Assembly (NCBI GenBank): GCA_027030245.1
Contig: JALVFE010000021.1
Location: forward strand, 350,247 to 414,246
Direction: 5' to 3'
Length of the DNA stretch: 64,000 bases
Source of the DNA: Melioribacteraceae bacterium
Lineage (GTDB): Bacteria; Bacteroidota; Ignavibacteria; Ignavibacteriales; Melioribacteraceae
This document shows, piece by piece, positions 1,903 through 56,168 of the stretch. The translations under genes and the position numbers were made by a program. Under the pieces are notes generated by a model. It saw nothing but the letters and a program-made list of their open reading frames with translations. It ran no database searches and was not told the DNA's origin. Every line of letters starts with the position of its first letter. Within the stretch, counting starts at the first letter, position 1.

Positions 1903-4900
1903 TTAATTATCTAACTCCATTAATAAATCGTCCAGATCGTCATCGGTAATATCCGCATCTTCAAAATCAACGGCCGAAATGTCTAATTCGGCACCCGATT
2001 TAACCGATTCTATTATCTGTAAGATATTTTCTTGAAATAAATTAGCTAATTTTTCAATAGTCTCCGGTTCATGATAATTTTTCGAATAATTAATATGTAG
2101 AATAAGCTCTCCATCCGCTATATTCCCCGTCACTTCCATTAAGTTTGGTCTTAAATTTTGAGGATTTCTCTCATCTCCCGCACTTTCTTCCGCTTTTTTG
2201 AATTTATTTTTCTCTTCTTCTTCACGGTTAAATACTCCCAAGTAATTAAACATAATCTCCGGTTCGGGAATATTATTCATTATTTCACGGACTTCCGGAT
2301 TGTTCGAGAGATATTTTAATACTCCAAATCCCATACCGTTATGCGGAATATTTCTCAATTGTTCTTTCACATATTTTAATGATCCGAGAACATCGGGAGC
2401 ATCCTTCAAATCAATTAATACGGGATAGGTTGAAGTAAACCAGCCCACCGTTCTTGAAATATCGACATCATCAAAAATATCTTCCCTACCGTGTCCTTCT
2501 AATCCTATAATATGTTTTCTCTTCCCATCCCACCGGGATAATGCTTCACCAAAAGCATTGAGCAATAATTCCAACATATTTGTGTTTAATTTCCGTGTAA
2601 CTTCTTGCAATACAATTTCCGTTTTTTCCGCCGGAATATTTATTACAACTTTTTCTTTACTTTCTTCGGTATTTTGACCTTTCTCAAAATCCGCCGGGAT
2701 TTTATAATACTCTTTGTTTTTACTTAAATTTTTCCAGAATTCAAGTTCATCAAGCCACAAATTATCGTTCGCCGATTTTATTAATTTCTCAGACCAATAT
2801 TTAAAAGAAGTTGTTTTTTCAGGTAACTTTACTTCCAATTCCCTTTTCAATAGTTCGTAAGCCGTTTGCAAATCTTCCAGAATTATTCTCCAGGAAACTC
2901 CATCAATTACCAAATGGTGAATAATTATCAACAATCTATCATTTTCTTCTTCGTTCAGTTTGAAATAAACTATTTTGAACAATGGACCTTTTTTAATATT
3001 TAAAGAACTCTGGTAAACGTTTGATTTTTCCGTAATGATTGCGGATATTTTACCGCTCTCAATCGCGGAAAGGTCTTCAACAACAAACGGCACATGCGAA
3101 TTCATCTCACTGAAAATTTGCCGATATCCGTTAGTGTCTTTTACATATCTCAATCTTAACACATCATGATGTTTCATAATTTCTTTTACGGCTTTAGCGA
3201 AAAGCTCCGTATTAATTTTCCCGGATACTTCCAACAAAATAGATTGATTCCAATGATTTGGATTTTTAAAGTTTTGCTCAAAAAACCATCGTTGAATTGG
3301 AGTTAACGGAACTTCACCGGAAATTAATCCTTGTTCGGCAACTACTTTCTTAGCTTTGTTTGCTAAATTTGCCAATCCTAAAATTGTTGGAGCCTCAAAT
3401 AAATTTTTAGGACTTAATTTCAATCCGGCCGCGTTAGCTTTAGCAATTACCTGTATTCCTAAAATAGAATCGCCTCCGAGCTCGAAGAAGTTATCAAGAA
3501 CTCCGATTTTATTGACTTGCAATACTTCTTTCCAAATTTCCAACAATATTTTTTCCGTTTTGCTTTCCGCTTCCACGAATTCGCTGGAAAGCACAAGATC
3601 ATCTTCAGTTGGAACAGGTAAGTTTCTACGGTCGATTTTTCCGTTAGGCGTTTTCGGTAATTCATCCAATTTAACGAAAACTGAAGGAATCATATAATCG
3701 GGTAGAATCTCGCTTAAGAAATTACGTAATTCTGCTCCATCCGTATTTTTATCTTTAACAACACTAAAATAACCGACCAATTTTTTAATGCCGGGTTTAT
3801 CTTCGCGTATTATAACCGCTGCATCATTTACGGAAGGATGTTTCTTAATGTTCTCTTCAATTTCACCCAGTTCAATTCTGAACCCTTTAAACTTAATCTG
3901 ATTATCGACGCGTCCTACAAATTTGATATTGCCATCCGGTTTGTAAAACGCCAAATCGCCGGTTTTATAAAGTCTTTCTCCGCCGTTTTTACTAAACGGA
4001 TTCGGAATGAACCTCTCGGCAGTTAAATCGGGTCTATTCAAATAACCACGCGCTTCACCTATAGATTCAATATAAACTTCTCCCGGAACACCAATCGGAC
4101 TCAGGTTCATGTTTTCATCAAGTATAAAAATCCGAGTGTTAGACATTGCCCTTCCGATCGGAGTTATTTCATCAGTGAAGATTTTTTCTTTTATTTCATA
4201 AATGGTCGAGCAAATCGTGGTTTCAGTCGGACCATAACCGTTCAAGATTAATATTTCCGGTACCTTATCATATATTCCGGATAGCGTCTTTAATTTAATC
4301 GGCTCAACTCCGACAAGCAGTTTTTGCAAATAAGAATCTTCACGATGATTTTCCAACCACTTGTCATATTCATCCAAAACAAACGGGGGTAAATACCCGC
4401 TGACCACTTTATGTTCACCGAGCCAACTAAAAAGCTGATCGTTTATCGCCCGTATTTCTTGTGGAACAATATGCAATTCGTTTCCGAAAATTAACGGGTA
4501 AAATATCTCATAAACCGATACATCAAAATTTAAACTTGTCCATAAACTACAAACACTTTCCCTAACCGGTTTGCGTCTGTCTGAGTCGTGTACGTGATTT
4601 ATCAAACCTTTATGGGTTTGCATAACACCTTTAGGTTTTCCGGTAGAACCCGAAGTATAAATTACGTAAGCCAAATTTTCCGGATATAATTTCAATTCCG
4701 GCTTTGTAAAATCAGTAAATACCGAACTGTCGTTATTGAAATCAACCGTCAACAGCTCAATCCCTTCTTTGCTGATTTTATTTTGAAGTTCGTTCTGGAC
4801 AAAAACAACTTTTACTTTACTGTCATCCAGCATATAAGAAATCCGTTTCTCCGGATATTCGGGATCGAGCGGAAGATACGCGGCACCGCTTTTTAATATT

Positions 4901-7900
4901 CCCATAAGCACCGCAATTGTATCTGTCGATGGATACATATATACGCCGACAATATCATCATGACCGATATTTTTGCTTATCAGATAATTTGCAACGGCGT
5001 TCGAGTATTTATCCAATTCACCGTAAGTAATTTTATTCCCGTTCCATTCAACGGCAATTCTCTCCGGATTTTCTTTAACTTTCTCCGAAAACAATTCATG
5101 GATTGTCTTGTTGTTAGGAAATTCGACTTCGGTATTATTCCATTCATTTAATAATTTTTGCTTTTCATAATTTGACACAAGCTCTATTTCCGAAACCTTT
5201 AGTCGTGGATTATCAAGCAACAGATTTAATAAATTTTTGAAATGTTCAATCATACGTTCGATTGTATCTTCATTAAAGAGACTTGTGTTATATTCGAAAT
5301 CGCATTGAATTCTGTTTTCAAATTCGGTTAATACAAAAGTTATATCAAATTTAGCAGTCTTCAAATCTACCGGCACAGGTTCCACAACAAATTCGTCACT
5401 TTCAATTTTTTGTAGCACGGATTGATTATAAACAAACATTACTTGGAACAACGGCGAATGACTCAATGAACGTTCAACATTTAATTCATCAACCAATTTT
5501 TCAAATGGTATTTCTTGATTCGATAAAGCTTCGAAGGTATTTCTTTTTATTTCTTCAATGATTTGAATAGCAGTTTTATCGGGTTCGATCAATGTTCTTA
5601 AAACCAACGTATTAACAAAAAATCCGATTATATTTTCCAGTTCTTTTCTTGTTCTTCCGGCAACCGGCGTTCCCACTAAAATATCATTGTTTCTCGCGTA
5701 TTTGCTCAACAGAATTTTAAATACCGTAAGCATAATTACAAACGGCGTAGATTTGGTTTCCGAACCGAACGTCTTAATTTTGTTAAAACTATTATAATCA
5801 ATTGCAAACCGTAATCTGCTTCCTTCTTGAGTTTGTAACGGTTTCCTTGGGAAATCGGTTGGCAATTCAAGCAAAGACGGAGCACCGGCTAATTTTGTTT
5901 TCCAATACTCAAGCTGTCTAAAATATGCATCGCTTTGCATCCATTCGCGTTGCCATTCGGAAAAGTCGGTATATTGGATTGATAACGGTTCAAGATCAAT
6001 CTCTTTACCTTTTGAAAGATTATCATAAACCGAAATTAATTCACGCACAAAAATTTGAATCGACCAACCGTCAGTAATAATGTGGTGCATGCAAGATAAA
6101 AAGTAATATTCTTCGTCACGTGTTTGGATAAGTCTGAATCTCACAAGCGGACCTTTGGCAAGATCAAACGGCTTAAGGGCTTCTTTCAATATAATTTCTT
6201 TTGTCATTGAATTTTTTATATTATTATCTAAGTCATTTAAATTCTTAAAGTTAAAATCTATTTCGTATTTATCCAGCACTACTTGCTTTGGTCTTCCTTC
6301 CGCCGAAGGGAAAACAGTTCTAAGCGAATGGTGTCTTTTTACCAAAATATCTATACTTTGCAAGAATAAATCAATATCCAGTAATTTTCCCTTAATGCGA
6401 ACGGTACCGGGAATGTTGTAAGTTGGACGACCGGGGTTGAGTTGTTCTAAAAACCATAATCTTTGTTGAGCAAAAGAAAGCGAAATTTCACGATGATCAT
6501 TAATTTCTTGTATTTCCAGTAAATTTTCTTTTACGTGCAGATCTTCTTCGCCATACCCGAAATATTTACTAATATCAACAGCTTTGTCATTTAAAAAATC
6601 ATTTTTATGATATTTTTTCCATCTGTCAATTACCTTTGGATTAATATTATTGTGTAAATAGAATTTAAAATCACCGACCATTTGAGATGTTTCTTTTACA
6701 GGCTCAGTCATTTTGTTCCCATGATAAGGTTTAATCATTTCTTCGTTATATTCAATCTCTAGAAATTCACAAATTTTTCTCATTTGGATATCAGGATTTA
6801 AAACCAGGTCTTCAAATTTCACCAAAAATTGTCTTTTGCCAGGAATATTCTTTAAGAAATTTAAAATGTTCTTGTGGGATACGGTCCAAATCATTTCCGC
6901 TAGTTCCCTTCTCCCAAAGTTATGCGCATAACGGAAAAAGTTTTGATCAAGATTGGCTTCTAAAAAAGAATAAACAGACGCGTACGGATTTCGAACAAGA
7001 TGAATGTACTTTGCATCTGTAAACCAATTTTCCATTCTATTTAAAATATTAATGTCCAATGAATAAGACGGAGTTTTATCCACTAATTTTCTCTCGCCCA
7101 ACCAATTTTGGATTATTTCATAAAATTCTTTGACACCAAGGTTCTGAGATTCGAATCGATTGATAATTTCTTCCGCTTCTTCTGCCGAACAATTCTTAAG
7201 CTCCATAACCACTCTAATCAATGATTCCAACCACAAAGAATAATTACCAGAAAGAGCTTCTTTCCTTTCGCGCAAGTCTGTATAAGAAAGTAAATCCAAT
7301 TCCGGTGGGGCAAAAAGATTTTCATTTCCCGCCATCATAACCCGTAACAGAGTGGAACCGGAACGCGGCGGTGACAGAATAAAAATTGCTTGGGGCAATT
7401 TATTTTGTTGTTTCGTCACCGGAACCGGCATAATAATTTTTTCAAATTCGTTAATATCGTTGTCTGTTATTTTTTTTGTGCTAAATTGAAATTTTTTGTC
7501 TATTAAATTCTGATTTGTTACATGGTCAAAATAAGCTCTTACTTTTTCGGGGAAATATTCATACGCATAAGTTATAAATTTTAATATGGTAGGTGCGAAA
7601 TTCAATGCTTTGCTTGGAATGTGTAAATTAAATTCTTTATTCAGTAAATCAATAAATTGTTGAGCTTTTTTTTCATTACCTCCCAACTCGAAAAAGTCAT
7701 CACCCGCAGAGATACTTTTTACACCAAGGATTTCCTCCCATTTTTGTATTAAATATTTTTCAAATTTTAACTCGATATTTTTATTTATTAAGTGAGAAGT
7801 ATCCTCTAGCAAATCTTTGTTTGATATATAATATTTTAAACTTTCAGCTAATTTAACTGCTTCATTGCTCAAATAATCATTTTCGGGCAACTTCTGCCAT

Positions 7901-10900
7901 TTATAAGCAATGTTCGCTTCAATTTGTTTATGTTCATGAAATTTCGGGTCGCCAACCATGTGTGATTCTGGATGAATACCATCGGTCATTCTTAACTTTT
8001 TATCTGCGTATGGATAAATCATATTTTCTTGGAACTGAATACCAAGAAATCCGGAAATGTTTTTCATACATTGTTTTGGATTTACGACTAAATTTTCAAA
8101 TTTAAGTGTATATCTTCTCTCTTCTGGAATATCTTTGAAGAATTCCAAAATATTTTGATTATTAATAATCCAAAACAGTTCGGCATTTTCCCGCTCGGAA
8201 AAACTGTTGTCGACACTGAATACTTCATTAAGTTTACTATTCAAATAAGATTGAATCATCGCCGAAGGATGACGGGTTATGTGAATGTATTTCACTTCGT
8301 CGAAATATAACTCTGCCCTTTTAAGAACCTCAAGGTTTGTAGCGTAAGTTGTGGTTTTGTCAACTAAAATTTTATCTCCAATCATTTCATCGAGTTTATA
8401 GTACAATTCTTGTATCGACATTCCGCTTTTTTCAAATTCACCGATAATCTCTTCAGCCTTTAAATAATCACAGTTATAAATTTGCATAATACCGCGCGTA
8501 AGACCTTCCGACCATCCTTTATCTCTTCCGGCAAATGCACGTTTTCTATCTTTTAAATTTTCAAATAAGAGAAGAGCCAATTCCGGCGGTGCAAATAATT
8601 TCTGATGACCGGCTAACATTACGCGTAAGAGCGTGGAACCCGAGCGGGGTGCCGATAAAATAAATACGGCTTTGCTCCCTTTTTTCTTCGGTAAAATCCG
8701 GGCATCCTGTTTTAAATAAGATTTAGCTTTTATTTTTTCCCGCATCAATCTAATCTTTTCCTCACCGATCGATGCTTTACGGTTACCGCTTTTTCGTACA
8801 GATATCGTTTTAATAAATTCGGAATTTTCTCCAAGTAATTTTGGTAAGGATTCAAAATAATTTGCTACGAGATACTGAGCATATTCTTCTATCGTTTGGT
8901 TATCGAATAAAGATACCACCCAAACCACTTTACCCAGTTTCTTTTGTAAGGTATTAATAAAAACAGCTGCTTTAAGCGAATCGCCCCCATATTCAAAAAA
9001 ATTGCAATCGGTTCCGATTTCATTAGTTTCCAAAACCTCTTTCCACATTTGCAAAAGAACTTCCTCGAGATGATTCGCCGGTTTTTTGTGTGCCTTCTTG
9101 TCTTCGCTGGATTTATCGGATATCGCAAGCAATTCGACTTTATCGATTTTTCCATGTTGGGTTAACGGAAATTCAACCAATTCAATAAACTTTGAGGGAA
9201 TCATATAACCGGGTAATTTATTCGCCAAGTATTCCCTTAAATTTGAACCATTTAATTTTACATCTCTTGATTTTATATAAAATGCCACCAGTGAATTTTG
9301 CCCGTCATTGTTTTTCTTTGGAAGAACTATCGCATCTTCAATTCCTTTATGTTGAGTTAAGATATTCTTTATTTCGCTTAACTCTATTCTGAATCCTCTA
9401 ATTTTTACTTGAGAATCAATTCTATCAATATATTCAATTGATTTGTCTGTTTGCATTCTAACACGGTCGCCGGTTCTGTAAATTCTTCCACCATGTTTAT
9501 TGCTGAATTTATCAGGTAAAAAAACTTTAGCCGTAATATCCGGTTTATTAAGGTAACCTCTTGCCAATCCGGTCCCGCTTATACAAAGTTCTCCCGGAAA
9601 TTTATATGGGACAGGATTTAGGGCTTTATCCAGAATAAAAGCGTTCAAACCCTTTACCGGTTTTCCAATTGGAATTTCTTTGAATTTCGCACATTCAATA
9701 TCCGTATTATTTAGTAAGTGGAACAATGAAACGATTGTTGTTTCCGTTGGACCATATGTATTTATTAACCGCACCTTTCCCCCGATAACCTTTAACCATT
9801 GAGCGGTCTTTATTGCATCGGCTTTTTCGCCGCCGATTATAACAATGCGTAAGGATGCGGGAAGGGATGTTTCCCCACTTACTATCTCCGGAACCAATTG
9901 GTGCCAATAAGCTGTCGGTAAATCAAGTACCGAAATATTTAATTCCCTAACAAAATCAAAAAATAATTTAGGCGAACTGATAACTGCTTCGGGACGGAGT
10001 ATTAACGTTGCCCCAATATTAAATGCATGAAAAATTTCTTCGGCAGCCGCATCGAAACTAATGGAAGCAAATTGTAAAAACCGGTCACTCTTACTAAAGC
10101 CGTATTCATTATATGTATTCAAAATATAGTTTACCACCGATTTATGAGAAACAGCCACACCTTTAGGATTACCGGTAGAACCGGAAGTGTAAATTATATA
10201 AGCAAGGTTCTCGTTAAAAATTTTTATTCCGGGATTTTTTTCATTTAATGCCTTAGAATCACCCGATAATATTTTACTAATATTCACAATGTTTCCACTG
10301 TATTCAGCATACCCGTCTTGAGTATCATTTGAAACAAGTAAAAGTTCCGCACCGGAATCTTCCAACATATAAAGCTTTCTTTTCCCCGGATAGTTAGGAT
10401 CAACTGGTAAATAAGCAGCGCCACTTTTCAACACACCGAGAATTGCAATAATCATTTCGGGTGATTTGTTAAAACTAATTGCGACTATCGATTCTGCTGT
10501 TATTCCGTTATCAATTAGATAATGTGCAAGTTTGTTAGCTTCGGTATTTAGTTCAATATAAGTTAAACTATGCTTTTCAAATTCCCCGTCTTCAGAATAT
10601 TCAACATATTCTAATGCCGTTTTATCAGGATATAGCGAAACTGTTTTCTCGAACATTTCTTGCAAGGTCAAATTACCGTCAGTTTCGATTTCCGGTGAAA
10701 TAATCTCATTTATGTATTTCCTTTCCTCCTCAGCATCTAACAATTTCAATTCGGAAATGGGAACAGTGGGATTTTCAACAGCATTTTTTAAAATGATTTT
10801 ATACCTTTTGATAAAATCATCAATTGTCTCTTCAAAAAACAAATCCGTATTGTAGCCAAGCAATCCCGTGAATCCATCGGGTGATTCTTCGATTGATAAA

Positions 10901-12177
10901 GTTATATCGAATTTAACATTCTTTGTTTCCACTTCACCGAATTCGAATTTCAAGCTCTCGGTAACAATTTCTTTTTTAGGTATATTTTGCATTACAAACA
11001 GTGTTTGAAAAAGCGGAGAACTTTCTTGAGACCTTTTAACCTTTAACGATTCGACAACTTTCTCAAAAGGTACATCTTTATTTGCAAATGCCTCTATCGA
11101 AAAACTATGAACTTGCTTAACAAGATCATTGAAATTTGGATCATCGGAAAAATTAGTTCTAAACACTAACGTATTGATAAAAAATCCGATTAAGTTTTGT
11201 AATTCGGGTTTATCCCTGTACGCAATAGGTACACCGACCGTCAGATCTTCTTGATTAGTATATCTGAAAAGCAATGATTTGAATGCTGAGAGTAAAACTA
11301 CAAACAATGTGGTTTTTCTCTCTTTTACAAAATCTTTAATTTTGTTCGAAAGTTCTTTTTCTATTAAAAAAGTTTTGTGTAAACCGTTGAAAGTTTGTTT
11401 CTCAGTATACGGTTTATCTATTGGTAAATTTAATTTAGAATTAATATTTTTTAATTGTTTTTTCCAAAATTTTAACTGTTCCGAAAATTTTCCTTTCTCG
11501 AAGTTCTCTTTTTGCCATTGGGCAAAATCTGCATATTGAATTTTCATTTGCGGCAGATTTATTTCTTCTTTACTCTCCAAAGTTTTGTAAACGGAAATAA
11601 CTTCATTCATAAAAACAGCAAGCGACCAACCATCCGCTGCAATATGATGGAAAGTAACAATCAAAATATGCTTCTCAGGATTTAGAGTAATAACAGAAGC
11701 ACGCACAGGGATTTCATTTGACAAATCAAATGGTTTTGAACCTTCTGCTAACGTAAATTTTTCGATTTTATCTTCTTCGTTTTCACCCGCTATATCTTCA
11801 ATTTTAATATTGTTTATAGATAGTTTAACATCAACCAAGACTTGTTGTTTAGGTGTGGTTTCAAAATCATAAACGGTTCTTAAAATTTCATGCCTTTCGA
11901 TAACCTTGTTTATGCTTTCTTCCAATAATAAAGGATCGAACTTTCCGGTAATTTTAACCGTTGCAGGCATATTATAAAAAGCACTTTCAGGATTCAGCTG
12001 ATGCAAAAACCATAATCGCTCTTGGGCAAAAGACATCGGATATTCATCTGTGTTTTCCCTTTGCGGTATTGATAGTATTTTCTGCTTCTGAGCAGATTTT
12101 TCCATCAATTTTTTTTCCAATATCGCACGTTGTTCGGGTGAAAGTTGTTCTAATTTTTTTTGAATGTCTTTTTTCAT
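1903..12177 (-). CDS. NRPS, C-A-T-ST-T*-ST-C-A-T-E, with two sulfotransferase domains
   Basis: Dimodular NRPS of 3424 residues. Approximate domains: C1 45-480 (HHIAADG); A1 500-1000; T1 1040-1110 (GGDS, Ser1067); sulfotransferase ST1 1165-1460; carrier-like T* 1465-1545; ST2 1590-1890; C2 1895-2330 (HHIITDG); A2 2345-2850; T2 2870-2935 (GGDS, Ser2904); epimerase 2945-3395 (HHLVIDG, EGHGRE). Both ST domains keep the PAPS 5'-phosphosulfate loop PRSGSTLL and the 3'-phosphate Arg-x7-Ser pair (RHPSAMIQS; RNPYASVYS). T* reads FFELGGNE, with Glu1502 where the phosphopantetheinylated Ser should be, so it should not carry substrate. By eye A1 gives pocket code DAEDIGTIVK, whose acidic positions suggest Lys or a related basic residue. 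A2 gives DVYYLGGICK, which I cannot assign. The gene lies 23 bases after the preceding NRPS gene. What the ST domains sulfonate is not shown by the sequence. Confidence 0.95.
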   Translation of the reverse strand: MKKDIQKKLEQLSPEQRAILEKKLMEKSAQKQKILSIPQRENTDEYPMSFAQERLWFLHQLNPESAFYNMPATVKITGKFDPLLLEESINKVIERHEILRTVYDFETTPKQQVLVDVKLSINNIKIEDIAGENEEDKIEKFTLAEGSKPFDLSNEIPVRASVITLNPEKHILIVTFHHIAADGWSLAVFMNEVISVYKTLESKEEINLPQMKIQYADFAQWQKENFEKGKFSEQLKFWKKQLKNINSKLNLPIDKPYTEKQTFNGLHKTFLIEKELSNKIKDFVKERKTTLFVVLLSAFKSLLFRYTNQEDLTVGVPIAYRDKPELQNLIGFFINTLVFRTNFSDDPNFNDLVKQVHSFSIEAFANKDVPFEKVVESLKVKRSQESSPLFQTLFVMQNIPKKEIVTESLKFEFGEVETKNVKFDITLSIEESPDGFTGLLGYNTDLFFEETIDDFIKRYKIILKNAVENPTVPISELKLLDAEEERKYINEIISPEIETDGNLTLQEMFEKTVSLYPDKTALEYVEYSEDGEFEKHSLTYIELNTEANKLAHYLIDNGITAESIVAISFNKSPEMIIAILGVLKSGAAYLPVDPNYPGKRKLYMLEDSGAELLLVSNDTQDGYAEYSGNIVNISKILSGDSKALNEKNPGIKIFNENLAYIIYTSGSTGNPKGVAVSHKSVVNYILNTYNEYGFSKSDRFLQFASISFDAAAEEIFHAFNIGATLILRPEAVISSPKLFFDFVRELNISVLDLPTAYWHQLVPEIVSGETSLPASLRIVIIGGEKADAIKTAQWLKVIGGKVRLINTYGPTETTIVSLFHLLNNTDIECAKFKEIPIGKPVKGLNAFILDKALNPVPYKFPGELCISGTGLARGYLNKPDITAKVFLPDKFSNKHGGRIYRTGDRVRMQTDKSIEYIDRIDSQVKIRGFRIELSEIKNILTQHKGIEDAIVLPKKNNDGQNSLVAFYIKSRDVKLNGSNLREYLANKLPGYMIPSKFIELVEFPLTQHGKIDKVELLAISDKSSEDKKAHKKPANHLEEVLLQMWKEVLETNEIGTDCNFFEYGGDSLKAAVFINTLQKKLGKVVWVVSLFDNQTIEEYAQYLVANYFESLPKLLGENSEFIKTISVRKSGNRKASIGEEKIRLMREKIKAKSYLKQDARILPKKKGSKAVFILSAPRSGSTLLRVMLAGHQKLFAPPELALLLFENLKDRKRAFAGRDKGWSEGLTRGIMQIYNCDYLKAEEIIGEFEKSGMSIQELYYKLDEMIGDKILVDKTTTYATNLEVLKRAELYFDEVKYIHITRHPSAMIQSYLNSKLNEVFSVDNSFSERENAELFWIINNQNILEFFKDIPEERRYTLKFENLVVNPKQCMKNISGFLGIQFQENMIYPYADKKLRMTDGIHPESHMVGDPKFHEHKQIEANIAYKWQKLPENDYLSNEAVKLAESLKYYISNKDLLEDTSHLINKNIELKFEKYLIQKWEEILGVKSISAGDDFFELGGNEKKAQQFIDLLNKEFNLHIPSKALNFAPTILKFITYAYEYFPEKVRAYFDHVTNQNLIDKKFQFSTKKITDNDINEFEKIIMPVPVTKQQNKLPQAIFILSPPRSGSTLLRVMMAGNENLFAPPELDLLSYTDLRERKEALSGNYSLWLESLIRVVMELKNCSAEEAEEIINRFESQNLGVKEFYEIIQNWLGERKLVDKTPSYSLDINILNRMENWFTDAKYIHLVRNPYASVYSFLEANLDQNFFRYAHNFGRRELAEMIWTVSHKNILNFLKNIPGKRQFLVKFEDLVLNPDIQMRKICEFLEIEYNEEMIKPYHGNKMTEPVKETSQMVGDFKFYLHNNINPKVIDRWKKYHKNDFLNDKAVDISKYFGYGEEDLHVKENLLEIQEINDHREISLSFAQQRLWFLEQLNPGRPTYNIPGTVRIKGKLLDIDLFLQSIDILVKRHHSLRTVFPSAEGRPKQVVLDKYEIDFNFKNLNDLDNNIKNSMTKEIILKEALKPFDLAKGPLVRFRLIQTRDEEYYFLSCMHHIITDGWSIQIFVRELISVYDNLSKGKEIDLEPLSIQYTDFSEWQREWMQSDAYFRQLEYWKTKLAGAPSLLELPTDFPRKPLQTQEGSRLRFAIDYNSFNKIKTFGSETKSTPFVIMLTVFKILLSKYARNNDILVGTPVAGRTRKELENIIGFFVNTLVLRTLIEPDKTAIQIIEEIKRNTFEALSNQEIPFEKLVDELNVERSLSHSPLFQVMFVYNQSVLQKIESDEFVVEPVPVDLKTAKFDITFVLTEFENRIQCDFEYNTSLFNEDTIERMIEHFKNLLNLLLDNPRLKVSEIELVSNYEKQKLLNEWNNTEVEFPNNKTIHELFSEKVKENPERIAVEWNGNKITYGELDKYSNAVANYLISKNIGHDDIVGVYMYPSTDTIAVLMGILKSGAAYLPLDPEYPEKRISYMLDDSKVKVVFVQNELQNKISKEGIELLTVDFNNDSSVFTDFTKPELKLYPENLAYVIYTSGSTGKPKGVMQTHKGLINHVHDSDRRKPVRESVCSLWTSLNFDVSVYEIFYPLIFGNELHIVPQEIRAINDQLFSWLGEHKVVSGYLPPFVLDEYDKWLENHREDSYLQKLLVGVEPIKLKTLSGIYDKVPEILILNGYGPTETTICSTIYEIKEKIFTDEITPIGRAMSNTRIFILDENMNLSPIGVPGEVYIESIGEARGYLNRPDLTAERFIPNPFSKNGGERLYKTGDLAFYKPDGNIKFVGRVDNQIKFKGFRIELGEIEENIKKHPSVNDAAVIIREDKPGIKKLVGYFSVVKDKNTDGAELRNFLSEILPDYMIPSVFVKLDELPKTPNGKIDRRNLPVPTEDDLVLSSEFVEAESKTEKILLEIWKEVLQVNKIGVLDNFFELGGDSILGIQVIAKANAAGLKLSPKNLFEAPTILGLANLANKAKKVVAEQGLISGEVPLTPIQRWFFEQNFKNPNHWNQSILLEVSGKINTELFAKAVKEIMKHHDVLRLRYVKDTNGYRQIFSEMNSHVPFVVEDLSAIESGKISAIITEKSNVYQSSLNIKKGPLFKIVYFKLNEEENDRLLIIIHHLVIDGVSWRIILEDLQTAYELLKRELEVKLPEKTTSFKYWSEKLIKSANDNLWLDELEFWKNLSKNKEYYKIPADFEKGQNTEESKEKVVINIPAEKTEIVLQEVTRKLNTNMLELLLNAFGEALSRWDGKRKHIIGLEGHGREDIFDDVDISRTVGWFTSTYPVLIDLKDAPDVLGSLKYVKEQLRNIPHNGMGFGVLKYLSNNPEVREIMNNIPEPEIMFNYLGVFNREEEEKNKFKKAEESAGDERNPQNLRPNLMEVTGNIADGELILHINYSKNYHEPETIEKLANLFQENILQIIESVKSGAELDISAVDFEDADITDDDLDDLLMELDN

Positions 12178-12200: not shown

Positions 12201-15200
12201 TTAATTATTTGTTTTATCAGAATCTTGCCCTAATTCTTCTGGGGATATGCCGGTTATTTCATTTAACAATGCTTCCAATTCATCATCCTCTTCATCCAAC
12301 AATTGAGCTTCCAAAACAGCCTTCGCAATTCCATCAACCGTTGGATTTTCAAATAAAGATTTAATGGAAATCTCCACGTTAAATTCCTCGTTAATTTTGG
12401 AAATTACGTGCATTGCGAGCATGGAATGACCTCCAAGCTCAAAAAAGTTATCAAACACACCTACTTTTTCCACACCCAATATCTCAGTTACAATTTTAGT
12501 GATCGCTTCTTCCATGGGTGTGCGCGGCATCACAAATTCCGTCTTAATTTTTCTCCGGATGTTTTCAATTTCAGGTAAGGAATTTTTATCAATCTTTCCG
12601 GAAGGTAATTTCGGGAATTCATCCAACTGCATAATCACAGCCGGAACCATGTAAGCCGGTAGTTTTGTTGAGAGATAATCAATTATTTCCGCTTCGTCAA
12701 TATTCTCATCAGATAAAATATATGCAGCCAAAAATTTATTATTGGAATCACCGGCAGCAATAACCAAAGCATCTTTAATTGAATCTATTTCACGTAATGT
12801 TTGCTCGATTTCACCAAGCTCTATTCTGAATCCCCTTATTTTTACTTGTGAATCGATCCTTCCTAAAAATTCATAATCACCTTCTTCCCTAATTCTTGCC
12901 ATGTCTCCCGTTTTGTAATAACGGACATTAGTTCCATCTGCCAAATTCTTATAAACAAATTTTTCTTCGGTCAGTTCACGTCTTCTGTAATAACCGTCGG
13001 CTATAATACCGCTTATACATAATTCTCCCGGAAAGCCTTTCGGCAAAATATTTCCGTTTTTATCCAATACATAAAAGCTTCTTCCTAGCAGTGGTTTACC
13101 AATAGGAATTCTGTATTTATTCGAATCGCTTTGTTTCACTAAATATGTGGATGCAGTGATAACGGTTTCAGTCGGACCGTAAGCATTTAGTAACCTGACA
13201 TTTTTCATTTTGGAATCATTCCACTTACTCACAAAATCGCTTTTCATTTCATCACCACCGGCGATGAACAATCTTACTAAATCGTCCGGCGCAGAATCGG
13301 GATGCTCGTACCAGAATTTTGTAAGTTCTTCCCAAACAACTGTCGGCGGGTTAACTACCGTAATTTTATGTTGCTTTATCTGTTCGGTGAATTCTTTTGG
13401 CGTCCAAAGTTTATCATCGCGCAAAATTACTTGTGCGCCGGTTAGCAAGGGAACCAAAATCTGTTCTATTGACGCATCAAAAACAAATGCCGCAAATTGC
13501 AGAACCACATCGTTCTTTGTTGTTCCGAAGTTTTCTTTTACGGAAAAATAATGTTTAACGAAACTTCCGTGATTTATTACCGTTCCTTTAGGTTTTCCGG
13601 TCGACCCGGAAGTGTAAATCATATACGCCGCATCTTCCGGTTTTATTTCTGGGAATTGTGTTCCGTTGCTTGTAACTTGGTTCCCGCCAATAGAGTTCAC
13701 ATTAATTTTCGTAATGTGTTCCGGTAATTTTCCGCTATAGTCATCCGAAGTTAAAACAACTTTGGTTTCCGAATCTTTTAAGATGTAGTCCAATCTTTCG
13801 TCCGGATATTCAACATCCAAAGGCAAATAAACTCCGCCGGCTTTTAATATTCCAATAAATGCCGCGATGTAATCGATCGACCGGTTTAAGTAAACACCAA
13901 CGGTTTCGCCTTTTTTAATGTTTTGCTTAAGTAATAACCTGGCGAGCGCATCAGAAGATTCTTCCAGTTTTCCAAAAGTTATACTTTCATTTCCGCAAGT
14001 AATTGCCGTCTTATCTATATTTTCACCGGCAGCTTCTCTAAATAATGCCGGTATCGATGACTGCTCAATTTCCAAACTTTCATTCAAAGTAATCGAACCG
14101 TGTTCTAACACTTCGTCTTCTCTCAACAACGGAATACTATCGATTGTTGCGTCACTATCTTCCGTAAAACTTCGCAGAATATTTTTATAGACTCTAATTA
14201 ATTGTTTGATTGTGAACGATTCGAATAAATCGGTATTGTATTCAAATTTACCTTTAAGCTTGTTGTCTGTTTCCGTAATGGACATAACCAAATCAAATTT
14301 TGTTGTACCGGTATCAATTTCCAAAGGCTCAAATATCACGTTTTCCAATTCCAGCTTTGCAACCGGCGCATTATTCAATACAAACATGGCTTGGAACAGA
14401 GCTGTTCTGCTGATATCCCTTTCGATATTGAGTTTTTCGACAATTGTTTCAAACGGTATATCTTGATTTTCGTATGCTTCAAGGGCAATTTTCTTAATTT
14501 GTTGCAAGTAATTTTTCACCGTTTCGTTTCCGTCAATCTGCGAACGCAATACTAACGTATTGATAAAAAATCCAATTAAGTTTTCAATCTCCGCTCTGTT
14601 TCTGTTGGCAATCGGCGTTCCGATATTAATATCTTCTTGATTCGTATACCGGTAAAGCAAAACATAAAATGCGGCAATGAGAACCATAAAAAGAGTTACA
14701 TCATTTTTCTTAGCAAGATTCACAAGCGAAGCATAAAGATTTTCATCAATTTCAAAAAGTTCGAAAGAACCGTTAAAAGTTTGGGTTTGCGGTCGCGGTT
14801 TATCCGTAATAATATCCAGAACCGTATTACAGTTTTTTAATTGATTTAACCAATAATCAATTTGCTTATCAAAAGCGCCGCTCTCAAGTCTGTTTTTCTG
14901 CCAAATCGCAAAGTCCGCATATTGAATTGTTAAATCCGGTTGAGATTTAACCTTACCGGAAACAAAATTTTGATAGTTATCAATCAACTCTTTTACAAAA
15001 ATTCCGGTAGACCAATTATCCGAAACGATGTGATGCATCGGCAATAAAACAATAAATTCATCGTCACCGGTTTTGATAATTGTCAAGCGTAACAAAGGAC
15101 CGTTTACCAAATCAAACGGTTTTGTGCTTTCTTCAATGATAATATTTTTTAATTCTTGCTCATTGTTAATTTGAATTTCGATATAATTACTTTTTATATT

Positions 15201-15551
15201 TAATTTTTCATGTATATTTTGTTTAACTTCACCGTTTTCCGAAAGGAAAGTTGTTCTTAATACTTCATGCCTTTCGATAATTTTATTTACTGACGTTTCG
15301 AGCGCATCCGGATTCAAGTTCCCTTTAACTTTTACGCCCATCGGGATAACGTATAAAGGACTGCCCGGTTCGAACTGTTCGAGAAACCATAATCTCTGTT
15401 GAGCGAAAGAAACCGGTAAGATTTTTTCATCCGTATTTCTTGGTAAGATTATCAAGTCGTCAATATCTACACCTTTTTGTTTCAGTAAAGCTCTAACAGC
15501 TTTCTGCTTTTCCACGGATAATTTCGAATAATTTTTTACTAATTCATTCAT
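12201..15551 (-). CDS. NRPS, single C-A-T module
   Basis: Monomodular NRPS of 1116 residues that adds one amino acid to the chain delivered by the upstream PKS. The condensation domain (about 30-470) opens SFAQQRLWFLEQF, the LCL-type form, and its active motif is HHIVSDN, keeping both His and Asp but with Asn for the usual final Gly. The adenylation domain (about 490-985) has YTSGSTGKPKG near 652 and the C-terminal lysine motif SGKIDK. My reading of its pocket is DAENFAAITK, which I cannot tie to a known amino acid. The carrier domain (about 1000-1075) has GGHS near 1037. The tail is acidic and helical (EEDDELEALLNEI), a possible docking element. The ATG is 2 bases from the stop of the upstream PKS gene, so translation is probably coupled. 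Confidence 0.94.
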   Translation of the reverse strand: MNELVKNYSKLSVEKQKAVRALLKQKGVDIDDLIILPRNTDEKILPVSFAQQRLWFLEQFEPGSPLYVIPMGVKVKGNLNPDALETSVNKIIERHEVLRTTFLSENGEVKQNIHEKLNIKSNYIEIQINNEQELKNIIIEESTKPFDLVNGPLLRLTIIKTGDDEFIVLLPMHHIVSDNWSTGIFVKELIDNYQNFVSGKVKSQPDLTIQYADFAIWQKNRLESGAFDKQIDYWLNQLKNCNTVLDIITDKPRPQTQTFNGSFELFEIDENLYASLVNLAKKNDVTLFMVLIAAFYVLLYRYTNQEDINIGTPIANRNRAEIENLIGFFINTLVLRSQIDGNETVKNYLQQIKKIALEAYENQDIPFETIVEKLNIERDISRTALFQAMFVLNNAPVAKLELENVIFEPLEIDTGTTKFDLVMSITETDNKLKGKFEYNTDLFESFTIKQLIRVYKNILRSFTEDSDATIDSIPLLREDEVLEHGSITLNESLEIEQSSIPALFREAAGENIDKTAITCGNESITFGKLEESSDALARLLLKQNIKKGETVGVYLNRSIDYIAAFIGILKAGGVYLPLDVEYPDERLDYILKDSETKVVLTSDDYSGKLPEHITKINVNSIGGNQVTSNGTQFPEIKPEDAAYMIYTSGSTGKPKGTVINHGSFVKHYFSVKENFGTTKNDVVLQFAAFVFDASIEQILVPLLTGAQVILRDDKLWTPKEFTEQIKQHKITVVNPPTVVWEELTKFWYEHPDSAPDDLVRLFIAGGDEMKSDFVSKWNDSKMKNVRLLNAYGPTETVITASTYLVKQSDSNKYRIPIGKPLLGRSFYVLDKNGNILPKGFPGELCISGIIADGYYRRRELTEEKFVYKNLADGTNVRYYKTGDMARIREEGDYEFLGRIDSQVKIRGFRIELGEIEQTLREIDSIKDALVIAAGDSNNKFLAAYILSDENIDEAEIIDYLSTKLPAYMVPAVIMQLDEFPKLPSGKIDKNSLPEIENIRRKIKTEFVMPRTPMEEAITKIVTEILGVEKVGVFDNFFELGGHSMLAMHVISKINEEFNVEISIKSLFENPTVDGIAKAVLEAQLLDEEDDELEALLNEITGISPEELGQDSDKTNN

Positions 15552-48526: not shown

Positions 48527-49570
48527 CTAATTAAATTCTTCGATTAATTTTTTGAAACCGGGAGTACTTTTTTCAACATATTTTCCATTTTCGTGTATAA
48601 ACATAATTACCGGAAAGTTATGTTTCAAGGCAAAACGGAATCCCTCTTCGGGTCCCAAAACAAGCAAAGCGGTTGCCCAACCGTCGGCTGTTGCGCACGA
48701 AGGATCCACAACGCTAACCGATACCAAATTATGTGTTACGGGTCTACCGGTTCTTGGATCTATTGTGTGTGAAAACCTCTTTCCGTTAATTTCGAAATAA
48801 TTATAATAATCGCCCGAAGTAGCCATTGATAAATTAAACAATTTTACAATTTTACTTATTTTATTTGAACCGTCGGGGTATTGAATTCCGATTTTCCAAA
48901 AATCACTTTTATTTTTCTTTCCTTTAGTGCGTACTTCCCCGCCGATTTCTACCATATAAGCCGTAAATCCATTATCGTCCAAAAATCCGGCTACTTTATC
49001 AACTCCGTAGCCTTTCGCTATTGAAGATAAATCTACGTAAATTTTCTCATTCCGCTTTTTAACTGAATACGGATTTTCTTTTATTAAAATATTTTTGTAA
49101 CCAACATTTTTTAATCTTTCCTTAATTTCCTTTTCGGAAGGAATTTGTTCCCTCCTATTTTCGGGACCGAACCCCCACAAATTGACCAATGGTCCGACTG
49201 TTATATCGTACGCACCGTTCGTCATTTTAGAAATCTCAAGAGCTTTGCGCAACACAGTATAAAAATCTTTCGATATGGCAAACCAAGTTGTATCTTTGAA
49301 TTGATTAAACCTTGAAATTTCCGAGGAATCAATATACGTGGACATTTCCAGATTAATTAAACGTAAGAGACTATCAATTTGGGCGTGAATTGTTTTATAA
49401 TTTTTTCCTTCCGGCTTAACCAGTTTAATTTGATAAGTTGTGCCCATCGTTGTACCGTTTAGTACAACCACGTTCGATTCATTCGAAGGAGAACAAGAGA
49501 AGATACCGAAAAGTAAGATAATCCAACTTAAGGAAAAGCGGACGTACTTTAATAAGTTTTTTTCTTCCAT
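48527..49570 (-). CDS. apbE: ApbE, FAD:protein FMN transferase
   Basis: Periplasm-facing lipoprotein of 347 residues that attaches FMN from FAD to threonines of target proteins such as NqrB and NqrC. Signal peptide ends LLFGIFSC with lipobox Cys. Domain motifs: GTTMGTTYQIKL near 40, AYDITVGPLVNLWGFG near 120, SSIAKGYGVDKVA near 184, EIGGEVRTKG near 208, SHTIDPRTGRPV near 268. I chose ATG 49570 over the TTG two codons earlier. It overlaps the end of the CBS-protein gene. Its place just downstream of nqrA-F fits flavinylation of the two Nqr subunits. Confidence 0.95.
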   Translation of the reverse strand: MEEKNLLKYVRFSLSWIILLFGIFSCSPSNESNVVVLNGTTMGTTYQIKLVKPEGKNYKTIHAQIDSLLRLINLEMSTYIDSSEISRFNQFKDTTWFAISKDFYTVLRKALEISKMTNGAYDITVGPLVNLWGFGPENRREQIPSEKEIKERLKNVGYKNILIKENPYSVKKRNEKIYVDLSSIAKGYGVDKVAGFLDDNGFTAYMVEIGGEVRTKGKKNKSDFWKIGIQYPDGSNKISKIVKLFNLSMATSGDYYNYFEINGKRFSHTIDPRTGRPVTHNLVSVSVVDPSCATADGWATALLVLGPEEGFRFALKHNFPVIMFIHENGKYVEKSTPGFKKLIEEFN

Positions 49571-50016
49571 TTCCAATCTTCGTAATAACGCCAGCTTACC
49601 ATTTGATTAAGCCGTTCTATCTCTTTGGTTTTCTCGATTAACATTGCCTTATTCACGTCGCCCGCAGAAAGCAGTCCGATAAATTTTCCGTTTTTTTCAA
49701 TCAACAAATGTCTTAATCTCATACCTAAAAATTTATCTAACAATTGATATAATGAATCCGTATGCGGGGCATAGCGTAATCCGGTAATCATATAATCTTT
49801 AATCTTTGCCGTTCTCGGATTAAAATTTTCGTCCATAACATTTCTCATTAAATCGCGTTCCGTCCAAATTCCAACGTATTCATCACCGTCTTTTACCAGA
49901 ATGGCGCCGATGTTTTTACTTAACATCGTTTTAAGAGCATTATATATTGTATCTTCGGGTGAAACCGATATTATTTCGTGACCTTTTTTTTCAAGAATTT
50001 CACCGGCCGTTAGCAT
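49549..50016 (-). CDS. CBS-domain protein
   Basis: Protein of 155 residues made of a pair of CBS motifs (about 1-65 and 70-130; ISVSPEDTIYNALKTM, GIWTERDLMRNV, GLLSAGDVNKAM), a module that senses adenosine nucleotides. There is no attached enzyme. A strong ribosome site (GGGAGG) precedes ATG 50016. It lies 86 bases after nqrF and overlaps apbE, so it is probably part of the Nqr transcription unit; a regulatory role there is only inference. Confidence 0.88.
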   Translation of the reverse strand: MLTAGEILEKKGHEIISVSPEDTIYNALKTMLSKNIGAILVKDGDEYVGIWTERDLMRNVMDENFNPRTAKIKDYMITGLRYAPHTDSLYQLLDKFLGMRLRHLLIEKNGKFIGLLSAGDVNKAMLIEKTKEIERLNQMVSWRYYEDWKWKKKTY

Positions 50017-50062
50017 ACTACCTCCCTTGGCTAATGTTTAATTTTAAGTTGGATTTACTTGC

Positions 50063-50086
50063 TATATTTTATTTTTGTAAAATATA
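50063..50086. repeat. Perfect AT-only inverted repeat after nqrF
   Basis: TATATTTTA (50063-50071) and TAAAATATA (50078-50086) form a 9-base perfect inverted repeat with a 6-base loop, 17 bases after the nqrF stop. It could slow polymerase at the operon junction, but a stem with no G-C pair and no T-tract is a poor terminator. Confidence 0.3.
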
Positions 50087-50102
50087 ACAAACTTTCTACG
50101 TA

Positions 50103-51338
50103 TTAGCCACCAAAATCGTCAAATAAAATATTATCCCGTTCTACGCCTAAATCGTCTAACATTTTAGTAACTGCGCTAAGCATTAAAGGAGGACCGCAGA
50201 TATAGTATTCACAATCTTCCGGAGCCGGGTGGTCTTTCAGATAATTGTCGTACAATACTTGATGAATAAAGCCGGTATATCCTGTCCAATTATCTTCGGG
50301 AAGAGGATCGGATAAAGCTAAAAACCATTTAAAGTTTGAATTTTCTTCTTGAAGTTTGTTAAAATCTTCAACGTAAAATGCTTCTCTAAGACTTCTGGCA
50401 CCGTACCAAAAAGTCATTTTCCTTTTTGTATGAACACGTTTAAGTTGATCGAAAATCATTGATCTCATAGGAGCCATACCCGCGCCGCCGCCGATGAAGA
50501 CCATTTCCGCATCGGTATCTTTAACGAAAAACTCACCGTAAGGTCCGGATATTGTGACTTTGTCCCCCGGTTTCAAGCTGAAAATATAAGAGGACATTTG
50601 ACCCGGAGGTGCATCCGGTTTGTTAGGTGGCGGAGTGGCGATTCTAACATTCAACATGATTATTCCCTTTTCCAAGGGATAATTTGCCATGGAATAAGCC
50701 CTGACGATCGGTTCGTCAACTTTCGAAATGTAACGCCATAAATTATATTTATCCCAATCGGGACGGTATTGTTCATCGATATCAAAATCGGAATATTTTA
50801 CTACATGAGGCGGAGCTTCAATTTGAATATAACCGCCTGCTCTAAAGTCAACATTCTCTCCTTCGGGAAGTTGCAAAACAAGTTCTTTGATAAACGTAGC
50901 AACATTTTTATTCGACTTGACAGTGCACTCCCATTTTTTAATTTCGAAAACTTCGGGAGGAATTTCCAATTTCAAATTATGTTTAACGGCAACCTGGCAA
51001 GAAAGACGGTAATGTTCCCGTACTTCTTTTCTGTTCAATTTACCCAACTCAGTGGGTAAAACGTCGCCGCCGCCTTCCAAAACTTTAACTTTACATTCGC
51101 CGCAAGTACCTTGTCCCCCGCAAGCCGAAGGCAAATAGATTTGATTATCCGCCAAGACAAAAAGAAGTTTTCCGCCTATCGGCACTTCCAATTGTAAATC
51201 GGGATTTTCGTTTATATCGATTTTCACATTCCCCGACGGAACCAATTTCGACTTGGCAAATAGAATTACCAATACGAGCAAAAGAACAATAAGCGTAAAC
51301 ATTATTACGCCCAAAACTATTAAGCTTAATCCACTCAT
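50103..51338 (-). CDS. nqrF: Na+-translocating NADH:quinone reductase subunit F
   Basis: NADH-oxidising subunit of Na+-NQR, 411 residues. An N-terminal membrane helix (about 5-28) is followed by a plant-type 2Fe-2S domain ([10 protein letters not shown] near 73, fourth Cys near 113), then FAD domain (RAYSMANYP near 214) and NAD-binding domain ([13 protein letters not shown] near 280, CGPPLM near 380). Ends FDDFGG, as usual for NqrF. Last of the six nqr genes, 12 bases after nqrE. Confidence 0.97.
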
Positions 51339-51350
51339 AAAAATTTATCC

Positions 51351-51962
51351 TTACAATTGAATTCCAGAAAACAGCATAAACGCCATTGCCATTAATCCGA
51401 CAGTAATAAACGTAATTCCCAATCCCCTTAATCCTTTGGGAACATTACTGTATTTCATTTTATATCTTACACCGGCAAGCGCAATAATTGCAAGCGCCCA
51501 ACCTATACCGCTTCCCAAACCGAATACCACGCTTTCCATAAAAGTATAGTCGCGCTCAACTATAAAAAGCGAACCGCCCAAAATAGCACAGTTAACTGTA
51601 ATTAACGGAAGAAATATTCCTAACGCATTGTAAAGCGAAGGGACGAACCTGTCCAACGTCATTTCCAAAATTTGAACCATTGCGGCAATAACACCGATAT
51701 AAGTCAACAAACCCAAAAACGTTAAATCAACGTTCGGAAGTCCCGCCCAGCTTAATGCTCCTTTAACAAGAACGTTTTTATAAATCAAGTTATTAACGGG
51801 AACGGTGATAGCCTGAACTACAATTACTGCCAGACCCAAACCAACAGCGGTTTCCACTTTTTTCGATAACGCCAAAAACGTGCACATTCCAAGAAAGAAT
51901 GCCAACGCCATATTTTCCACAAAAATCGATTTTATAAACAAGCTTAAATAATGTTCAAACAT
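51351..51962 (-). CDS. nqrE: Na+-translocating NADH:quinone reductase subunit E
   Basis: Integral membrane subunit, 203 residues with six predicted helices and normal family length. Seen: [32 protein letters not shown] (with the Cys that helps bind the intramembrane iron centre), [13 protein letters not shown]. Paralogous to nqrD, which precedes it by 1 base. Works with NqrD to move electrons and Na+ across the inner membrane. Confidence 0.97.
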
Positions 51963-51963
51963 T

Positions 51964-52584
51964 TTAATATTCCTCTACTTGTTCGGGTTTCCAGGTTCTA
52001 ACCGCCCAAATAATTAATCCGATAATAAAAAATGCGCTCGGCGATAACAAAAATAATCCGTTCGGATTGTACCACCCGCCTTCTGTTGTTAATTTTAAAA
52101 TCGATATTCCGAAAAATTTTCCGGAACCGATTAACTCGCGTAAAAATCCTACGGTTAATAAAATAAATGCATATCCCATACCGTTGCCGATTCCGTCTAA
52201 GAAACTTAAAACCGGCGGGTTTTTTAGAGCAAAAGCTTCCGCACGACCCATGATTATACAGTTGGTTATAATCAATCCGACGTAAACGGAAAGCTGTTTA
52301 CTAATGTCGTAAGCGTAAGCTCTTATCAGTTGATCGGCAATAATAACGAGAGACGCTATAATAGTCATCTCAACGATGATTCTGATACTACTCGGTACCT
52401 GCTTTCTGATAAGGCTCACAGAGAAATTGGAAATGGCGGTAACAAAAGTTACGGCTAATGCCATCACCAATGCCGTTTCGAGTTTAGCGGTAACCGCAAG
52501 AGCCGAGCATATACCCAAGATTTGCAGTGCAATCGGGTTATTATCAAAAATCGGATCTAATAAGACTTTTTTATACTTGCTCAT
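51964..52584 (-). CDS. nqrD: Na+-translocating NADH:quinone reductase subunit D
   Basis: Membrane subunit of 206 residues, six helices. Seen: [49 protein letters not shown], all characteristic of NqrD/RnfE. The TNCI cysteine is a ligand of the membrane iron cofactor. Overlaps the nqrC stop by 14 bases, suggesting translational coupling. Confidence 0.97.
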
Positions 52585-53380
52585 TTTTCATTCCTCTAAG
52601 AGTTCTAAGGAAGTGACCGTAACCTTCTTCGCTCAACCAGAATCTTACAAGATTATTCACGCCGCGTGTTGTGAGCGTTGCACCCGAAAGCCCATCAATC
52701 GTATGATTTGCTTCCGGACTCGACGGATCGACTTTACCTTTGATTACTTTAATAATCGGTTGCCAATTATCGTTAAAAGCTTGTTTCCCTTTCCACAATT
52801 GTTTCCAGCGCGGGTTGTCCACTTCCCCGCCCAAGCCGGGGGTTTCTCCGTGTTCGTAAAATGTAATTCCGCTTATTGTTTTTAAATCCTTATCCAAAGC
52901 AATAAATCCGTAAAGCGTAGACCACAAACCTTTCCCGTAAATTGGAAGAATGTATTTGGAAACGTTACCGTCTTTATCCATTACCTTGTAAACTAACATG
53001 TATTTCGGTTTCTTTTTAATTCTCGCTATATCTTTCTCCGGCGGAATAGGTGTAACCAAATCGGGATTGCTTATAATTTTTTTCAAATCAAAGTTTTCCG
53101 GCATCAATTCTTTGGTATATTGATCTTCCGGAACAACTTCGCCGGTTTCAAGGTTTATCAATTCGGTTTTAATTTTTTTGTGATAAACTTCTTTAATTTC
53201 TTCGGAATTTCCTTCAGGCTTTAGATCGGCTGCTTCCAAAATATTTTCAATTTTATCCAGCTTTTTGTTTTCTTCTTGTTTTTCGCTTAAAGCAACCGTA
53301 GCCGAAGAGACAAAAACCGAACAAACCAAACAAACTCCAAGCGCCACGCCAATCGTTTTCTTTGCACTATCAGACGACAT
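52571..53380 (-). CDS. nqrC: Na+-translocating NADH:quinone reductase subunit C
   Basis: FMN-carrying subunit of 269 residues from ATG 53380, which follows AGGAGG; the longer reading from 53428 lacks a good site and overlaps nqrB more. One N-terminal helix ([19 protein letters not shown]) anchors a periplasmic domain. The flavinylation motif is DGLSGATLT near residue 232, whose Thr should receive FMN from Apb[12 protein letters not shown] is the other conserved segment. Overlaps nqrB by 11 bases. Confidence 0.96.
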
Positions 53381-55924: not shown

Positions 55925-56168
55925 ACCGTTCACTTTTATACAATTATAAATAATTTAATTTGCTTATTAAAGAATTGAAAAGAAAAGAAATTTTTGGCAT
56001 CTTTTATTTGATTATTGTGTAAAAAAAGACAACGTTCGAAAATTAACTTTCACAAACTTACGAGATTGTTTTTGCAAGTTCAACGATTTTTTCAAAATTT
56101 TTTATACAAATTTATCTTATTTTTCCGGTGAGAAACTTAATTATCATATCAATATCCCGGAAAAGTTT

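What the first reader, a model, noticed from the sequence alone, without database searches (positions are those of the whole stretch)
7500..8990. Duplicated carrier-sulfotransferase unit with a carrier that has lost its serine
In the 3424-residue NRPS, [T1-ST1] is followed directly by [T*-ST2]. The two ST domains share long motifs (PRSGSTLLRVM, LFAPPEL), so the pair looks like an internal duplication of a carrier-sulfotransferase didomain. T* keeps the carrier fold but its GGxS is GGNE (Glu1502, codon 7672-7674), so it cannot be phosphopantetheinylated. Both ST domains retain PAPS-binding residues. Two STs serving one working carrier, separated by a pseudo-carrier spacer, is a layout I do not know from described synthetases. 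It could sulfate two groups on one intermediate, or one ST could have become structural.
Basis: partly seen in the sequence, partly recalled or inferred. Interest (0 to 1): 0.85.

Follow-up and report, generated by a model that had tools for sequence, protein, structure and literature searches.

The report
Dead carrier fused to second sulfotransferase
A bacterial peptide-building enzyme has a second sulfate-adding domain joined to a carrier domain that lacks its attachment serine, a pairing also found in other bacteria, and this second domain likely adds sulfate to the product while it hangs on the neighbouring working carrier.

Summary
The order T1-ST1-T*-ST2 is real, and T* has Glu1502 (GAA, 7672-7674) where carriers have serine. 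"Internal duplication" is wrong: ST1 and ST2 lie in different clades and holding them together is rejected (AU p = 2e-124); the second unit comes from another lineage. Five listed relatives share the order, and all six T* have Glu or Asp at the serine (316 of 322 carriers examined have Ser; these six do not). ST2 is not decaying: at 55 near-invariant sulfotransferase positions each of the six deviates at 0-1, and its identity between orthologues (70.5%) is close to ST1's (74.9%), whereas T* has drifted (55% against 77% for T1). A second group of 14 listed synthetases, one from cultured Caldithrix abyssi, reads C-A-T-T*-ST, and all 14 second carriers lack serine. There the only working carrier in the protein is the one before T*, so a dead carrier between a working carrier and an ST is a recurrent arrangement. 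I infer that ST2 sulfates the chain on T1 across T*. A same-genus relative has T1-ST1 without T*-ST2, probably by loss, so the unit looks like a dispensable tailoring step. Chemistry and product are untested.

The parts
1903..12177 (-). N5, NRPS of 3424 aa, C-A-T1-ST1-T*-ST2-C-A-T-E
9130..10653 (-). A1, adenylation domain, code DAEDIGTIV (nine positions read by alignment; substrate not assigned)
8872..9084 (-). T1, working-type carrier (GGDS)
7825..8676 (-). ST1, sulfotransferase domain, same clade as the ST of N7
7576..7767 (-). T*, serine-less carrier (GGNE)
7672..7674 (-). codon GAA, Glu1502, at the phosphopantetheine attachment site of T*
6547..7401 (-). ST2, sulfotransferase domain of another lineage than ST1, conserved residues intact
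5149..6489 (-). C2, condensation domain that would take the chain from T1
   Evidence: role inferred
12201..15551 (-). N4, C-A-T synthetase directly upstream in the line; its best hits among the proteins held are the 14 C-A-T-T*-ST proteins

Best explanation
T*-ST2 is a sulfotransferase unit of a different lineage from ST1 whose own carrier lacks the attachment serine, and ST2 is predicted to sulfate the chain held by the upstream carrier T1, with T* likely serving only as a carrier-shaped spacer or dock. Shown: the domain order; no serine in any of the six T*; different ancestry of ST1 and ST2; intact conserved residues in ST2; a second group (C-A-T-T*-ST) in which the only serine-bearing carrier next to the ST lies before a dead one. 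Inferred: the arm of T1 visits ST1 and then, past T*, ST2; the chain is sulfated at a second site; C2 takes it from T1. Inferred origin: a [C-A-T-ST1] block was recombined onto a [T-ST2-C-A-T-E] synthetase; the stranded second carrier, with no A domain of its own, then lost its serine so that it would not compete with T1, while ST2 stayed under selection. Whether the sulfate stays in the product or is a leaving group is open.
For: 316 of 322 carriers have Ser, the six T* have E, E, E, D, E, D. ST2 deviates at 0-1 of 55 near-invariant columns in each of six rows, mean of 158 other STs 0.83. Mean pairwise identity: ST2 70.5%, ST1 74.9%, T1 76.9%, T* 55.3%. ST2 model matches CurM and OLS ST, TM 0.91 and 0.92 by target length. 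14 of 14 C-A-T-T*-ST proteins have a serine-less T* and STs with 1-3 deviations of 55. ST1 and ST2 in different clades. P0047 has the other N5 domains without T*-ST2 and its ST nests among the ST1s; the same layout is read in same-genus DNA, L042. PAPS supply is plausible: APS kinase in the genome.
Against: No activity, substrate or product is shown. Two tandem relatives keep Ser in the second carrier (L038, L039), so loss of the serine is not needed for the layout. P0047 does without T*-ST2, so ST2 is dispensable there. ST2 has Lys or Arg where CurM and ST1 have His, and although that position varies widely in the family its role here is unknown. Near-invariant residues could also be kept for folding. 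The four-domain model is too weak to show reach from T1 to ST2 (pTM 0.44).
Confidence: 0.52

Rival explanations
1. T*-ST2 is the scar of a module swap: it keeps spacing between ST1 and C2, or is vestigial, and ST1 alone does the sulfation.
For: T* is drifting (55.3% identity); P0047 and L042 show that the line exists without T*-ST2; ST1 stands behind A domains of one code type in all rows read, so it alone could be the cognate enzyme.
Against: ST2 keeps the near-invariant ST residues in six of six rows and is more conserved than C2, A2 and E; in the 14 C-A-T-T*-ST proteins the only ST of the protein sits on a dead carrier and is intact.
Confidence: 0.25
2. ST2 is active but works on a carrier of another protein in the line (for example N4 or N6), or on a free substrate, and T* only holds it in place.
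For: In-trans sulfation of a carrier-bound residue is described for SulN of sulfazecin (PMC11298585, passages); N4's listed homologues bear the T*-ST unit at their own C-terminus, so the unit may have moved from the N4 step to N5.
Against: N5's ST2 and the N4-type units fall in different clades in the best tree, although one clade is not rejected (p = 0.067); T1 is by far the nearest working carrier.
Confidence: 0.17
3. T-ST was duplicated inside N5 and the second copy decayed.
For: Shared motifs and adjacent position.
Against: AU p = 2e-124 against one clade; the same separation; many motif residues are family-wide.
Confidence: 0.01

Closest known systems
AerB/DysB of suomilide, varlaxin and dysinosin, and the Planktothrix oci cyanopeptolin synthetase (PMC10143770, PMC6520454, PMC2533009; passages seen)
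   Same: A carrier followed by an ST inside an NRPS; in AerB the next module adds an amino acid that is epimerised, as in C-A-T-ST-C-A-T-E; sulfate stays in the product (glycerate sulfate)
   Different: One ST, with its own working carrier, in a glycerate loading module; no serine-less carrier and no second ST described in the passages seen
Activating sulfotransferases of CurM and olefin synthase (4gbm, 4gox)
   Same: Nearest solved structures of ST1 and ST2
   Different: There ACP-ST-TE at the end of a line makes a terminal alkene (PMC3903477, passages); here C follows and no TE is next to the ST
C-A-T-T*-ST synthetases (14 listed proteins, e.g. P0254 of Caldithrix abyssi DSM 13497), uncharacterised
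   Same: Serine-less carrier joined to the front of an intact ST, behind a working-type carrier
   Different: No ST between the working carrier and T*; T*-ST closes the protein; separate clade in the best tree
SulN/SulM of sulfazecin (PMC11298585, passages)
   Same: Sulfation of a residue while bound to a PCP, from PAPS
   Different: Separate enzyme acting in trans, N-sulfonation, no pseudo-carrier in the passages seen

Membership tests
Peptidyl carrier protein (T domain), for T* | Carrier sequence and fold | tested here: met
   Third PP-binding stretch of N5 in Pfam; PDB NRPS carriers at E 6e-11; helices 5-18, 36-50, 56-60, 65-75 in the model
Peptidyl carrier protein (T domain), for T* | Attachment serine (GGxS) | tested here: not met
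   Glu1502; six of six T* acidic
CurM/OLS-type activating sulfotransferase, for ST2 | Sequence and fold of the family | tested here: met
   4gbm E 1e-62; TM 0.91 and 0.92 by target length
CurM/OLS-type activating sulfotransferase, for ST2 | Near-invariant residues, including the PRSGST loop and the PPEL Glu (Glu base: recalled from the abstract of a paper not held) | tested here: met
   0-1 deviations of 55 columns per row in six rows
CurM/OLS-type activating sulfotransferase, for ST2 | ACP-ST-TE tridomain at the end of a line | tested here: not met
   T*-ST2 is followed by C-A-T-E
CurM/OLS-type activating sulfotransferase, for ST2 | Sulfates a beta-hydroxyacyl thioester and leads to elimination | not testable with these tools
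   needs enzyme assay
NRPS T-ST tailoring module (AerB/DysB/oci type) | A working carrier directly before the ST | tested here: not met
   met for ST1 and N7's ST, not for ST2
NRPS T-ST tailoring module (AerB/DysB/oci type) | Sulfated residue in the product | not testable with these tools
   needs culture or expression and mass spectrometry
Serine-less carrier-ST unit of the C-A-T-T*-ST proteins | Serine-less carrier before an intact ST, behind a serine-bearing carrier | tested here: met
Serine-less carrier-ST unit of the C-A-T-T*-ST proteins | Common descent of the unit | tested here: inconclusive
   separate in the best tree; one clade p = 0.067 with 4 of the 6 N5-type rows
Internal duplicate of T1-ST1 | ST1 and ST2 units nearest relatives of each other | tested here: not met
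   AU p = 2e-124

The most novel reading that the evidence does not exclude
Serine-less carriers joined to sulfotransferases are a domain class of their own, evolved at least twice: non-catalytic carrier-shaped adaptors that hold a tailoring enzyme in the pose a loaded carrier would give it, so that another carrier's cargo can be handed across. The acidic residue that mostly replaces the serine (6 of 6 in the window's group, 10 of 14 in the other, and in the extra copy P0122: 17 of 21) may stand in for the phosphate of the missing arm.
Probability: 0.2. Interest if true: 0.75.

Novelty: new variant of a known kind. Interest (0 to 1): 0.56.

Why it matters
Carrier-ST modules are known, but an intact ST fused to a carrier that has lost its serine breaks the working rule that a tailoring domain acts on the carrier beside it. 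Two groups of synthetases (6 and 14 listed proteins) and a relative without the unit make the question directly testable: does an ST reach over a dead carrier to the working one, and does the dead carrier matter? The answer would change how products are predicted from domain order and would show a natural way to add a tailoring step without adding a competing carrier.

Tried and rejected
Internal duplication of T-ST: rejected (the same test did not finish). ST2 dead because of His to Lys/Arg: set aside, since that position is His in only 87 of 170 STs and many STs with intact carriers lack it. One origin of all T-ST-T-ST proteins: first units as one clade rejected (p = 2e-52), L038/L039's four units as one clade rejected (p = 1.5e-5), second units as one clade rejected in the 39-row tree (p = 0.007) but not in the larger quick tree (p = 0.24). 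One origin of both serine-less groups: p = 0.067; N5 second units with L060: p = 0.36, 0.22 and 0.09; undecided. My first count of the attachment column read the wrong column and was redone. The acidic residue as a strict rule fails: two Pro and two Lys among the 14. Substrate of code DAEDIGTIV: no paper found that prints it; not assigned. The four-domain model was not used (pTM 0.44).

Limits of the counts: only the best 120 of 915, 419 and 1098 proteins are listed, so counts are of listed proteins. One ST of 170 was left out of the tree for shortness. ST2 identity was measured over residues 1592-1850, ST1 over 1168-1452, and C2, A2, T2 and E over 10 instead of 15 pairs because P0003 is cut. 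The 120 short proteins were looked over for the serine, not tallied. The 39-row and 48-row trees use chosen subsets, the latter 4 of the 6 N5-type proteins.
Full report
WHAT IS THERE. The window is G000:C21:350247-414246. N5 (1903-12177, -) is a 3424-aa NRPS, C-A-T1-ST1-T*-ST2-C-A-T-E. The last condensation-type domain is called E from its place after the last T and its HHxxxDxxSW-type motif (recalled). T* has GGNE; Glu1502 is codon 7672-7674. N5 is one of nine synthetase genes of a line that runs out of the window: N1 (AMP-binding, carrier, KS-AT-DH-ER-KR, carrier), N2 (KS-AT-T-C-A-T), N3 (KS-AT-KR-T), N4 (C-A-T), N5, N6 (C-A-T-C-A-T), N7 (C-A-T-ST-C-A-T-E), N8 (C-A-T-C-A-T), N9 (four C-A-T and a TE), followed by a standalone ST, an MFS transporter, a thioesterase and a PPTase. 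An APS kinase lies elsewhere in the genome (E 1.7e-74).

RELATIVES WITH THE SAME ORDER. Of the 120 listed homologues of residues 1110-1890 (915 found), six, the query included, have T-ST-T-ST; P0003 is cut in the next C. At the attachment site 316 of 322 carriers (120 listed proteins plus the line's other synthetases) have Ser, and the six T* have E, E, E, D, E, D. From a Ser codon, Asp or Glu needs at least two base changes, so one chance step does not give it. T* drifts (mean identity 55.3% against 76.9% for T1), while ST2 (70.5%) is held almost as tightly as ST1 (74.9%) and more tightly than C2 (61.3%), A2 (57.8%) and E (56.8%). At 55 ST columns that are at least 95% conserved in 158 other STs, the six ST2s deviate at 0-1 each; ST1s at 2-3 each; the others at 0.83 on average.

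NOT A DUPLICATION. In the ST tree (169 rows) and the T-ST trees ST1 sits with N7's ST, P0119, P0071, P0098 and P0047, whose A domains before the ST all read DAED[IL]GT[IV]V. ST2 sits inside the large C-A-T-ST-C-A-T-E group. Holding ST1 and ST2 units together costs 156 log units (p = 2e-124). P0107 resembles the presumed recipient: serine kept, C2 50%, A2 71%, T2 91%, E 65% identical to N5. P0047 has the N5 domains but no T*-ST2; its ST groups with P0005 (96/92) and its linker after ST resembles the one after ST2 in P0005. L042, from same-genus genome G006, has the same T-ST-C order in DNA and the same T motif. The simplest reading is one gain and a later loss.

TWO MORE TANDEMS. L039 changes frame between its second T and its ST. 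Their A1 codes read DVWHISLID and DFWNIGMVH, which I recall as Ser and Thr codes. In the family search 11 of 79 genomes had any match and 3 (G000, G008, G032) the tandem; in 395 genomes drawn from the phylum 2 had a match at E 1e-60 or better, so the unit is rare.

THE SECOND SERINE-LESS GROUP. Among 113 proteins new (120 listed of 1098), 14 are C-A-T-T*-ST and all 14 T* lack Ser (E 9, P 2, K 2, D 1). Of the other 137 T's, 136 have Ser and one is cut at the protein's end. One of the 14, P0254, is named Caldithrix abyssi DSM 13497; a search of that organism's genome paper for six NRPS-related terms found none in the main text (PMC5317091). The 14 form one clade (99/97), keep their ST residues (1-3 deviations of 55), all read DAENIGAIT like N4 of this window, and are N4's best hits (42-47% over about 1100 aa; next best 40%). 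L060 (P0122) is one more copy, cut by a contig end: T-T*(GGDE)-ST, stop, then a gene starting with C-A. In these proteins the only serine-bearing carrier next to the ST is the one before T*; if the ST acts in cis, working carrier, dead carrier, ST is a working order. That is the strongest argument that ST2 of N5 can serve T1. Whether the two groups share an origin is undecided (p = 0.067).

MECHANISM (inferred). T1 is loaded by A1; ST1 acts first, as ST1-clade STs follow one A-code type; the arm then reaches ST2; C2 takes the chain from T1. T* remains as a spacer or dock and was silenced because it has no A domain and would idle in front of C2. The acceptor groups are unknown; N3's KR would leave a beta-hydroxyl upstream in the chain (Pfam KR). 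In dysinosin-type lines the sulfate stays in the product (PMC10143770, PMC6520454, passages); in CurM/OLS it is a leaving group (PMC3903477, passages). I cannot decide between these. Weak support for a working ST2: three same-genus genomes each have three T-ST units, arranged differently (G000; G006 and G008); the fourth same-genus genome, G007, had only weak matches of carrier length.

STRUCTURE. T*-ST2 (22 rows): pLDDT 87.4, pTM 0.83; best PDB matches 4gbm and 4gox, TM 0.91 and 0.92 by target length. The four-domain model is weak (pTM 0.44).

LITERATURE. Searches of the open library for ST domains in NRPSs and for inactive carriers gave single carrier-ST modules and no serine-less carrier joined to an ST in the listings and passages seen. 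The main CurM ST paper is not held; that it proposes a glutamate base is recalled.

Noticed in passing
L006:6476-15403 (G000:C21:336776-345703), outside the window: N7, a 2975-aa C-A-T-ST-C-A-T-E synthetase of the same line; its first A code (DAEDIGTVV) nearly equals N5's.
   Followed up: partly
L007:5462-6544 (G000:C21:315762-316844): A standalone 360-aa sulfotransferase at the end of the line, next to an MFS transporter, a thioesterase and a PPTase.
   Followed up: no
P0049, P0050: T-C-A-T-ST-ST: two STs in direct tandem with no carrier between; the first STs pair and the second STs pair in the tree, all four in one clade, as expected of a true ST duplication.
   Followed up: no
P0150, P0164, P0237 (Thiothrix nivea) and similar: Standalone carrier-ST proteins of about 430 aa are common among the short homologues; what loads them is unknown.
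   Followed up: no
P0341, P0342, P0347, P0348, P0350 (Planktothrix agardhii): Cyanobacterial synthetases with a carrier-ST unit 41% identical to T*-ST2, possibly the sulfated-peptide synthetases of the aeruginosin/cyanopeptolin kind (not checked).
   Followed up: no
G000, G006 and G008 each have three T-ST units, arranged differently (two in one protein in G000 and G008, separate proteins in G006).
   Followed up: partly
window 48527-55933: Genes of a Na+-translocating NADH:quinone reductase type (NqrA, an NqrB/RnfD-like subunit, an FAD/2Fe-2S reductase) with an ApbE protein, beside the biosynthetic line.
   Followed up: no
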